Of a DNA stretch of 30,078 nt, positions 25,791 through 27,028 are shown in pieces. The position numbers and the translations under genes are program-made. The stretch comes from Dickeya chrysanthemi NCPPB 402. GTDB lineage: Bacteria; Pseudomonadota; Gammaproteobacteria; Enterobacterales; Enterobacteriaceae. The stretch spans positions 2,529,264 through 2,559,341 of the forward strand of contig NZ_CM001974.1 of the NCBI RefSeq assembly GCF_000406105.1, given 5' to 3'. Every line of letters begins with the position of its first letter. Within the stretch, counting starts at the first letter, position 1. A model generated the notes under the pieces. That model saw only the letters and a program-made list of their open reading frames with translations, did not search any database and had not been told where the DNA came from.

Positions 25791-27028
25791 TTCCGCTGGC
25801 TCAGACACTGCGACCGGTCAGCCGGGCGCGGGCGGCACTCTCCCGTCAACTGGCGACGGCGCACCGCTTCGCCTTCATGCTGGATGGCCAGCCCGGCGAG
25901 TTGCGTTTGCAATTGGCGCAGGAAGCCAAGCCCGACGCGCAGGAGAGCGGCTGGCGCTGCCACGCCGGAACGCTGTGGCTGGACAACGCCGCCCCGTTGC
26001 TGTCGTTGTTTTCCGCCTGCCCGGCGCTGCTGCCCGGCCCGCATGACAGTGAAGACGCCGTACACTGGTACTGGACCCACTACAATCATGCGCTCAGCCC
26101 GGCGCTGCGCGACCTGTTCGGCGAGTTGCAACCGCTATTCCCGGCGCCAACGGGCCACTCAGCCATACCCGACAAGACACAACCGCCAGACGATTCAGAC
26201 CAGCCAGACAATTCAGCGTCAGCAGCGTCAGCGGCGTCAGCGGCGTCACCTCATCCGGCACCATCCGACGCTCACGCGCCGGCCGAGGTAACGCTGTGGC
26301 TGGACGCCAGCCGGGGTGATTTCCGGGTGCGCAGCCGGTTGCGTACCTCGCACCAGACCTTGCAACAATGGTTAAGTCGGCCGGGGTGGTCGGCCCCGCG
26401 CTATCCGCTACCCGGTCATCTGGCGATAAGGGTGCCGTTAATACTGGCGGAAGTGACGTTGTCACATAAACAATTAACCCATTTGGAACCGGGCGACCTG
26501 ATCTGTCCACTCAAACAGTACTTTTCACCGCAGGGCGACGGCAGTATCACGCTGGCCGACCGGCGGTTGACCGGGCAGCTCAGGATGGACGTGCTCGCCC
26601 CTTACTGGTTTACCGTGACAGAACTGGAGGAATGTCCCGTGACAACACCTTTTGACGACACCGCCGTTTTCGATAATACCGCCGCTTTCGACGCCGATAC
26701 CGCGTCTGAAGCCTCGCCGTATGCGGAGTATGGCGCACCGGATGGCGACAATCCTGCCGGCGCGTTGTCCGGTTATGCGTTGCCGCCGCTGACGCTGGCG
26801 CTGACCGTGCGTTGCGGCTACCTGACGCTGACACTACAGGATTTACAGCAACTCGCCCCCGGCTCGGTGCTGACGTTGCAGCAGGCGACGCCCGGTGAAG
26901 CCACCCTCTATCACGGCGAACAACCGCTGGCATTGGGGGAACTGGTCGATGTGGAAGGGCGACTGGGATTGCAGATCACCCGCCGCCTCGGGGTTGATGG
27001 CGAAATCGAATCGGAGTCATCACGATGA
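25787..27028 (+). CDS. hrcQ: HrcQ (SctQ), sorting-platform/C-ring protein, full-length form
   Basis: FliN/FliM-like component of the cytoplasmic sorting platform. The 413-residue protein is one continuous frame; in P. syringae the same protein is split into HrcQA and HrcQB. The N-terminal half (about 1-120) is followed by a low-complexity linker (about residues 125-165, Pro/Ser/Ala-rich, with four Ala-Ser-Ala units). A first SpoA-type part follows (about 205-280). After an acidic linker (about 285-325, DDTAVFDNTAAFDADTASEA) comes a C-terminal SpoA domain (about 335-405, LTVRCGYLTLTLQDLQQL and LVDVEGRLGLQITRRLG). GGAGG lies 8 bases before ATG 25787. The gene contains an internal hrp box and an internal in-frame GTG with a strong ribosome site (see separate entries). 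It overlaps hrcR as ATGA. Confidence 0.93.
   Translation: MIPLAQTLRPVSRARAALSRQLATAHRFAFMLDGQPGELRLQLAQEAKPDAQESGWRCHAGTLWLDNAAPLLSLFSACPALLPGPHDSEDAVHWYWTHYNHALSPALRDLFGELQPLFPAPTGHSAIPDKTQPPDDSDQPDNSASAASAASAASPHPAPSDAHAPAEVTLWLDASRGDFRVRSRLRTSHQTLQQWLSRPGWSAPRYPLPGHLAIRVPLILAEVTLSHKQLTHLEPGDLICPLKQYFSPQGDGSITLADRRLTGQLRMDVLAPYWFTVTELEECPVTTPFDDTAVFDNTAAFDADTASEASPYAEYGAPDGDNPAGALSGYALPPLTLALTVRCGYLTLTLQDLQQLAPGSVLTLQQATPGEATLYHGEQPLALGELVDVEGRLGLQITRRLGVDGEIESESSR
26216..26251 (+). repeat. 9-bp tandem repeat in the hrcQ linker
   Basis: Four near-identical 9-bp units of GCGTCAGCG type in the hrcQ frame (26216-26224, 26225-26233, 26234-26242, 26243-26251). They encode repeated Ala-Ser-Ala in the linker between the N-terminal and SpoA parts; the last unit diverges. 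Unit number could vary by slippage without breaking the frame. Confidence 0.85.
26485..26513 (+). promoter_or_regulatory. intragenic hrp box inside hrcQ
   Basis: GGAACC (26485-26490), 16 bases, CCACTCA (26507-26513): every fixed base of the HrpL consensus is present. The spacer is 16, whereas the four upstream-of-gene boxes in this window have 15; both are accepted spacings. It would start a transcript near 26520 that carries the C-terminal part of hrcQ and hrcR-hrcS-hrcT-hrcU. Confidence 0.65.
26639..27028 (+). CDS. possible separate HrcQ C-terminal protein (HrcQB/SctQ-C-like) from an internal start
   Basis: GTG 26639 is in frame with hrcQ (codon 285). GGAGG (26626-26630) lies exactly 8 bases upstream, as good as any ribosome site in the operon. 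Translation from it would give a 129-residue protein with the acidic linker and the C-terminal SpoA domain, close in size and content to the separate HrcQB of P. syringae. Several other T3SSs make a short SctQ-C from an internal start in the same gene, where it joins the full-length protein in the sorting platform. Production here is inferred from sequence only. Confidence 0.55.
   Translation: MTTPFDDTAVFDNTAAFDADTASEASPYAEYGAPDGDNPAGALSGYALPPLTLALTVRCGYLTLTLQDLQQLAPGSVLTLQQATPGEATLYHGEQPLALGELVDVEGRLGLQITRRLGVDGEIESESSR

What the first reader, a model, noticed from the sequence alone, without database searches (positions are those of the whole stretch)
26624..27028. Internal in-frame GTG with strong ribosome site could make a separate HrcQ-C protein
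GGAGG at 26626-26630 is 8 bases before GTG 26639, which is codon 285 of hrcQ. The 129-residue product would carry the C-terminal SpoA domain and resembles HrcQB of P. syringae, where the protein is split into two genes. It also parallels SctQ-C made by internal initiation in other T3SSs. Together with the hrp box 126 bp upstream, the second half of hrcQ looks like a gene within a gene: its own promoter, ribosome site and start.
Basis: partly seen in the sequence, partly recalled or inferred. Interest (0 to 1): 0.8.

Follow-up and report, generated by a model that had tools for sequence, protein, structure and literature searches.

The report
Gene within a secretion-system gene
The hrcQ gene of this Dickeya-like plant pathogen very probably makes two proteins, the whole ring protein and a separate copy of its last third started from an internal GTG; this is a known trick of such injection machines, and here the internal start site is kept across almost all of the related genes examined.

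Summary
In detail: GGAGG (26626-26630), 8 bases, GTG at 26639 (codon 285 of hrcQ), 129-residue product. It is the only one of 590 in-frame internal start codons in 21 window genes with GGAGG 5-9 bases upstream. In 91 single-gene hrcQ sequences (47 Enterobacterales, 44 Pseudomonas-like) this column is GTG 54, ATG 34, TTG 2, CCC 1, with a Shine-Dalgarno 4-mer in 88. Its codon changed 14 times on a tree, once to a non-start. The site lies between SpoA1 and a disordered linker before SpoA2. In 16 split hrcQA/hrcQB loci, hrcQB starts within about one codon of the equivalent place; these form one clade, so the split probably used an existing internal start. The upstream hrp box is invariant in 13 of 13 Dickeya/Prodigiosinella/Lonsdalea-type genes but missing from five other enteric rows shown; a promoter is plausible, not shown. 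Verdict: a genuine SctQ-C internal start, a new member of a published kind (YscQ-C, Spa33-C, SpaO-short, Xanthomonas HrcQ-C). Neither the protein nor promoter activity was tested.

The parts
25787..27028 (+). hrcQ (SctQ), full-length protein 413 aa; N-terminal domain, SpoA1 (about 213-282), disordered linker (286-332), SpoA2 (336-400)
   Evidence: TIGR02551 106.5 bits vs cut-off 100.8; PF01052 at 337-400; AlphaFold2 model, mean pLDDT 74.2
25774..25779 (+). GGGAGG ribosome site of hrcQ itself, 7 bases before ATG 25787
   Evidence: sequence; strongest of 21 gene starts, -10.3
26485..26513 (+). hrp-box match GGAACC-N16-CCACTCA inside hrcQ (putative HrpL promoter)
   Evidence: invariant at all 11 specified bases in 13 of 13 clade rows, best of 310 same-phase placements; activity not tested
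26626..26630 (+). GGAGG internal Shine-Dalgarno
   Evidence: GGAG, GAGG or AGGA in 88 of 91 rows
26639..26641 (+). GTG internal start codon, codon 285 of hrcQ
   Evidence: start codon in 90 of 91 rows
26639..27028 (+). HrcQ-C, predicted 129-residue product (acidic disordered leader plus SpoA2)
   Evidence: PF01052; 1o9y HrcQB-C E 6.5e-20
27025..27678 (+). hrcR, overlapping hrcQ by ATGA; would also be served by the internal hrp box if active
   Evidence: TIGR01102; sequence

Best explanation
hrcQ encodes two proteins in one frame. Ribosomes start at ATG 25787 to make full-length HrcQ, and independently at GTG 26639, using GGAGG 26626-26630, to make HrcQ-C, a FliN-like SpoA2 protein with an acidic flexible leader. 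By homology with studied SctQ-C systems, HrcQ-C dimerises through SpoA2 and joins full-length HrcQ in the cytosolic sorting-platform pods, stabilising it. In Pseudomonas of the P. syringae type, a start at the same place belongs to a separate gene, hrcQB, in a frame shifted from hrcQA. Shown here: sequence, conservation, domain boundary, homology. Inferred: that the protein is made, what it does, and how the split arose.
For: 90 of 91 rows have a start codon at the column, the highest share of 332 columns filled in at least 60 rows. All 54 Val there are GTG although GTG is 1002 of 1871 Val codons in these genes, and the key Glu is GAG in 83 of 85 although GAG is 917 of 1855 Glu codons. 14 codon changes on a tree built without the site, a single change to non-start. 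Codon 285 follows the last SpoA1 strand (271-282) and opens the disordered stretch 286-332. In 16 of 16 split loci hrcQB starts on ATG with the hrcQA stop 1-11 bases after its first base; 14 of 16 keep GAGG upstream, and the 16 form one clade, support 0.83. Local RNA is not structured beyond chance (z +1.35). Homology: 1o9y, 62% identity, rmsd 1.3. Published precedents (passages read): YscQ-C (PMC4295842), Spa33-C from GTG (PMC4832279), SpaO GTG203 (PMC4443714), Xanthomonas HrcQ-C (PMC8553256).
Against: No protein or ribosome data for Dickeya were seen. L052 has no start codon at the column and only a weak ATG further on. L103 and L122 have only GGAAGAA. Ranked by pairing energy the site is first in 42 of 90 genes, not in all. 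In the split loci the ATG lies mostly 12 bases after GAGG, against 8 in the single genes that have GAGG, so it is not the identical base; L090 and L092 lack GAGG. One other Val column is also all GTG (33 of 33). The rows are related, so counts are not independent.
Confidence: 0.93

Rival explanations
1. Codon 285 is an ordinary Val and the GGAGG is chance coding sequence (Leu-Glu-Glu).
For: Internal start codons are common: 590 in 21 window genes.
Against: GTG in 54 of 54 Val, swaps only among start codons bar one row, GAG kept in 83 of 85, position at the edge of a disordered linker; hrcQB starts within about one codon of it in 16 of 16 split loci.
Confidence: 0.03
2. The internal hrp box is a working HrpL promoter that gives a short transcript for HrcQ-C, hrcR and the export genes after it, so HrcQ-C can be made independently of HrcQ in this clade (an addition to the best explanation, not an alternative).
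For: 13 of 13 clade rows match GGAACC-N16-CCACNNA; all 11 specified bases invariant, best of 310 placements (next 9 of 11). Pro241 is CCA in 13 of 13 while CCA is 72 of 467 Pro codons; L005 and L037 use AGA, 5 of 288 Arg codons, where the box needs A. 7 matches in the genome, 3 of them in this window. hrcQ is HrpL-upregulated in D. dadantii (PMC2957411, passages).
Against: Missing from five other enteric rows displayed (L011, L017-L020) and, in its GGAACC form, not found in the other Enterobacterales loci scanned, so not needed for HrcQ-C in general. 13 of 94 invariant degenerate columns are codon-invariant anyway. The published hrp-box search of D. dadantii covered intergenic regions. No start-site data seen.
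Confidence: 0.55
3. The GGAGG serves the overlapping 7-codon frame from ATG 26632, or translational coupling, rather than HrcQ-C.
For: ATG 26632 lies one base after GGAGG and is present in 7 of 8 Dickeya rows.
Against: Spacing too short for efficient initiation (general knowledge); the ATG is in 7 of 91 rows, while 90 of 91 keep a start codon at codon 285.
Confidence: 0.01

Closest known systems
HrcQ-C of Xanthomonas campestris pv. vesicatoria (PMC8553256; passages read)
   Same: Plant-pathogen HrcQ with an internal start and a C-terminal product; GAGG upstream of the internal codon
   Different: ATG at codon 211, GAGG 11 nucleotides upstream; product of about 20 kDa; Hrp2-type system (table in PMC3574062); tested in vivo
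HrcQB of Pseudomonas syringae (PDB 1o9y; HrcQA/HrcQB split stated in PMC3574062, passages)
   Same: Homologous SpoA2 protein with an acidic leader; start within about one codon of the equivalent of codon 285 in 16 of 16 split loci
   Different: Separate gene in a shifted frame, so no full-length fused protein
YscQ-C of Yersinia (PMC4295842, passages; PDB 3uep)
   Same: In-frame internal initiation giving the last third of SctQ
   Different: Met218 codon; remote sequence (E 5.1e-05); shown to be needed for secretion
Spa33-C of Shigella (PMC4832279, passages) and SpaO-short of Salmonella (PMC4443714, passages; PMC13059759, abstract)
   Same: GTG as the internal start codon; FliN-like product that complexes with the full-length protein
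   Different: Animal-pathogen systems; protein shown experimentally
Flagellar FliN
   Same: SpoA fold (4yxb/4yxc FliM-FliN fusion is the best fold match)
   Different: Separate flagellar gene; this genome has two more PF01052 genes elsewhere, in frames of 355 and 144 codons, probably fliM and fliN

Membership tests
SctQ/HrcQ (TIGR02551) | Whole-protein score over the curated cut-off, in a T3SS operon | tested here: met
   106.5 vs 100.8 bits; neighbours hrcV, hrcN, hrcR, hrcT, hrcU
SctQ-C made by internal initiation | In-frame start with Shine-Dalgarno at the SpoA1/SpoA2 boundary | tested here: met
SctQ-C made by internal initiation | Start and ribosome site conserved among relatives | tested here: met
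   90 of 91 and 88 of 91; nine more divergent SctQ kept apart: 8 of 9 have an ATG 81-90 codons before the end with pairing of -5.6 or better, L136 only -3.0
SctQ-C made by internal initiation | Product is a FliN-like SpoA domain | tested here: met
SctQ-C made by internal initiation | Short protein detected in cells and lost when the internal start is removed | not testable with these tools
   needs bench work
SctQ-C made by internal initiation | Dimerises and binds full-length SctQ; supports secretion | not testable with these tools
   reported for the relatives cited; the model of HrcQ-C alone was poor (pLDDT 56.5)
HrcQB (separate gene) | Own open reading frame separate from hrcQA | tested here: not met
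   the GTG is in frame inside one 413-codon hrcQ
HrpL-dependent promoter (hrp box) | GGAACC-N15/16-CCACNNA | tested here: met
   26485-26513; the consensus is recalled, not from a call
HrpL-dependent promoter (hrp box) | HrpL-dependent transcription start just downstream | not testable with these tools

The most novel reading that the evidence does not exclude
In the Dickeya/Prodigiosinella/Lonsdalea lineage the second part of hrcQ is a complete nested gene, with its own HrpL promoter, ribosome site and start, so that HrcQ-C and the export-gate genes downstream can be raised separately from full-length HrcQ; and the split hrcQA/hrcQB of P. syringae-type Pseudomonas arose once, by a frame shift at this pre-existing internal start.
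Probability: 0.48. Interest if true: 0.62.

Novelty: new member of a known kind. Interest (0 to 1): 0.46.

Why it matters
It says that the two-protein output of sctQ genes probably holds across Hrp1-type systems of Enterobacterales and Pseudomonas, where the unbroken single-gene records opened here (3 plasmids) list one protein, so tagging, deletion and stoichiometry work on HrcQ must reckon with HrcQ-C. It also offers a DNA-level case of gene fission at an existing internal start: hrcQB. If the internal hrp box works, the ratio of HrcQ-C to HrcQ is set by transcription as well as translation in this clade.

Tried and rejected
Chance Val codon: rejected by codon conservation. Use of the overlapping ATG 26632: kept in 7 of 91 rows only. 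The first in-script alignment had minus-strand loci the wrong way round and was redone. L136-L144 were set aside from the 91 at first as supposed FliM; (7 of those 9 scanned, all over the SctQ cut-off) shows that this was wrong, so they were examined apart. A smaller alignment misplaced L050; the larger one puts its AAGGAG-N6-ATG at the column. Viral contigs: no relative. Genome contigs: 2 loci only. HrcQ-C modelled alone gave a poor model, not used for fold matching. Class-wide search with alignment A1 gave 2 of 369 genomes, one of them the window's own. A draft of this report said that hrcQ's own ribosome site has the same 8-base spacing and that hrcQB starts at the identical place; one search shows 7 bases, and a shift of mostly four bases, and both are mended. 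Dropped before the count of 91: L004 and L036 (same genomes as L008 and L005), L058 (broken), L063 (distant), a second SctQ-like match of G219 (not fetched), one of 71 Pseudomonas-like matches not fetched (second match of G1194), and 17 of the 70 fetched whose SpoA2 lies in a frame under 300 codons (15 of them used as split; L112 and L095 left out because no overlapping hrcQA frame of the expected kind was found). Of 12 plasmid records 5 were opened: 3 used as single genes, one split, one broken. L024 and L035 are counted in the 91 although the upstream part of their gene is broken; they were left out of the tree.

Full report
What is there. The window is the hrp/hrc cluster of a Dickeya genome closest to D. 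chrysanthemi (HrcQ 89-90% identical to two D. chrysanthemi entries). Operon order on the + strand is hrpJ (SctW), hrcV, hrpQ (SctD), hrcN, two small genes at the hrpO and hrpP places, hrcQ, hrcR, hrcT, hrcU (hrpO and hrpP named by position, no family over its cut-off; hrcS, expected between hrcR and hrcT, was not examined). hrcQ runs 25787-27028, overlapping its neighbours by ATGA at both ends. GGAGG at 26626-26630 precedes GTG 26639, codon 285, by 8 bases, as stated; hrcQ's own GGGAGG (25774-25779) stands 7 bases before its ATG.

Is it more than chance within this window? Of 590 in-frame internal ATG/GTG/TTG codons in 21 genes (taken as longest frames, so some gene starts may be wrong), one has GGAGG 5-9 bases upstream: this one. 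By pairing energy with the anti-Shine-Dalgarno it is third of 590 (-9.3), behind two G-run sites (-9.9, -9.7). Only hrcQ's own start pairs better among the 21 gene starts. Within hrcQ it is first of 27.

Conservation. I gathered hrcQ genes by protein search: 40 of 391 genomes of the window's family with a match, 8 of 9 genus genomes, plasmid records, and 63 of 398 genomes of a Pseudomonas-like family (identity inferred, for example G1138 encodes at 100% a HrcQb protein, P0097, that a source lists under P. syringae pv. actinidiae). After the drops listed under Tried and rejected, 91 distinct hrcQ sequences remained. At the aligned column the codon is GTG 54, ATG 34, TTG 2 and CCC 1 (L052); a 4-mer GGAG, GAGG or AGGA lies upstream in 88, the others being L052, L103 and L122. 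Enterobacterales: GTG 24, ATG 20, TTG 2, CCC 1 of 47; Pseudomonas-like: GTG 30, ATG 14 of 44. Among 332 columns filled in at least 60 rows, this column has the highest start-codon share (0.989). The next is the window gene's own start column (0.947), which is high partly by construction, because rows were cut at their first start codon and 44 of 91 begin there; the third is 0.66. Val at the column is always GTG (54 of 54; gene-wide 1002 of 1871), though one other Val column is also all GTG (33 of 33). The Glu supplying the ribosome site is GAG in 83 of 85 (gene-wide 917 of 1855), the highest of 24 Glu columns. On a tree built without the site, the codon changed 14 times and left the set of start codons once. 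A protein-level need for Val, Met or Leu is unlikely, because the predicted structure ends SpoA1 at residue 282 and has low confidence, as disorder gives, at 286-332.

The wider family. Nine divergent SctQ genes from Pseudomonas-like genomes (L136-L144) do not align at this column. I first took them for FliM; one search scanned seven of them and all score above the SctQ cut-off. Looked at on their own, eight of nine have an ATG 81-90 codons before the end with pairing of -5.6 or better (in L139 a TTG further up pairs slightly better); L136 has only -3.0. L052, the exception among the 91, scores below the SctQ cut-off (70.1 against 100.8) and has an ATG 87 codons before the end with weak pairing.

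Split genes. In 16 split loci (15 of the Pseudomonas-like set, plus the P. antarctica plasmid L057) hrcQB begins with ATG and hrcQA stops 1-11 bases after the first base of that ATG (8 in 10 of 16) in another frame (for L057). In 14 of 16 a GAGG precedes the ATG, in the same acidic end of SpoA1 as in the single genes; L090 and L092 have none. The ATG lies 12 bases after GAGG in 12, 13 in one and 9 in one, against 8 in all 57 single genes that have GAGG: the place is the same to within about one codon, not to the base. In a tree of the N-terminal part the 16 split rows form one clade without single-gene rows, support 0.83. The simplest reading, an inference, is one fission by a small insertion or frame shift at an existing internal start. 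That P. syringae has HrcQA and HrcQB as two genes is published (PMC3574062, passages); their joint alignment with SctQ is in a figure legend of PMC4295842. I did not see the nucleotide-level match described in the listings searched, but the HrcQB structure paper and the YscQ-C paper are not held.

The hrp box. GGAACC-N16-CCACTCA lies at 26485-26513, with 125 bases between it and the GTG. The strict pattern occurs 7 times in the 4.7-Mb genome, against none for the pattern read backwards, and 3 of the 7 are in this window: before hrpJ at 19082, at 7189 on the minus strand, and here. In 13 of 13 rows (8 Dickeya; L010, whose site sequence matches Prodigiosinella confusarubida; L013-L016, matching Lonsdalea) the box is complete, and its 11 specified bases are invariant, the best of 310 same-phase placements (next best 9). 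Two of its synonymous choices are notable: Pro241 as CCA in 13 of 13 (CCA is 72 of 467 Pro codons) and Arg as AGA in L005 and L037 (5 of 288). Against this, 13 of 94 amino-acid-invariant degenerate columns are codon-invariant anyway, and the clade is a small sample. Five other enteric rows displayed lack it. hrcQ is 2.1-fold HrpL-upregulated in D. dadantii, and the published hrp-box search was applied to intergenic regions (PMC2957411, passages). A transcriptome map exists with start sites and HrpL promoters, but its tables are in supplements I could not open (PMC9239193, passages).

Mechanism. Most likely: independent initiation at GTG 285 gives HrcQ-C, which dimerises through SpoA2 and pairs with HrcQ in the sorting-platform pods. 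This rests on homology: HrcQB-C (1o9y) E 6.5e-20 by sequence and 62% identity with rmsd 1.3 by fold; and on experiments in relatives: YscQ-C is needed for assembly and secretion (PMC4295842, passages), Spa33-C forms a 1:2 complex (PMC4832279, passages), a SpaO-short dimer docks on one SpaO but is not absolutely required for translocation (PMC13059759, abstract), Xanthomonas HrcQ-C contributes to HrcQ stability (PMC8553256, passages). RNA around the site folds less than shuffled sequence (z +1.35), which fits an open ribosome site but is weak evidence.

Novelty. Internal initiation in sctQ, including from GTG (Spa33, SpaO) and in a plant pathogen (Xanthomonas), is published, and PMC4832279 already says that the start position is conserved in uncharacterised homologues (its Fig. 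S2, not seen). No title or opening of an abstract in the listings points to it in Dickeya, Erwinia or Pectobacterium, within open-licence PMC. So: a new member of a known kind, with two less familiar additions, the fission site and the nested hrp box. The odds of the novel case were lowered slightly (0.50 to 0.48).

Noticed in passing
window 19082-19109 (+) and 7162-7189 (-): The other two strict hrp-box matches of the window: one ends 45 bases before the hrpJ frame (19155), one on the minus strand lies about 250 bases upstream of the 841-aa frame 4384-6909.
   Followed up: partly
window 26444-26461 (hrcQ codons 220-225): Codons 220, 223 and 225 are invariant in 13 of 13 clade rows just upstream of the hrp box; unexplained.
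   Followed up: no
L079, L080, L081, L083: A GGAACT-N15/16-CCACTCA hrp-box-like site inside hrcQA, 378-399 bases before hrcQB, in four split loci.
   Followed up: partly
L058 (Pantoea dispersa plasmid), L024, L035: hrcQ is interrupted upstream of the internal site while the C-terminal part with its start remains; the L058 record annotates a short protein starting at the GTG of this very column.
   Followed up: partly
L060 (Enterobacter hormaechei plasmid pE80014967-1, human blood): Carries a plant-type secretion cluster that shares several protein accessions with that of the P. dispersa plasmid.
   Followed up: no
L052 (G219): The only one of 91 hrcQ rows without a start codon at the column; that genome has a second SctQ-like match on another contig.
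   Followed up: partly
L112: SpoA1 and SpoA2 lie in a 230-codon frame separate from the N-terminal part: a break well upstream of the internal start.
   Followed up: no
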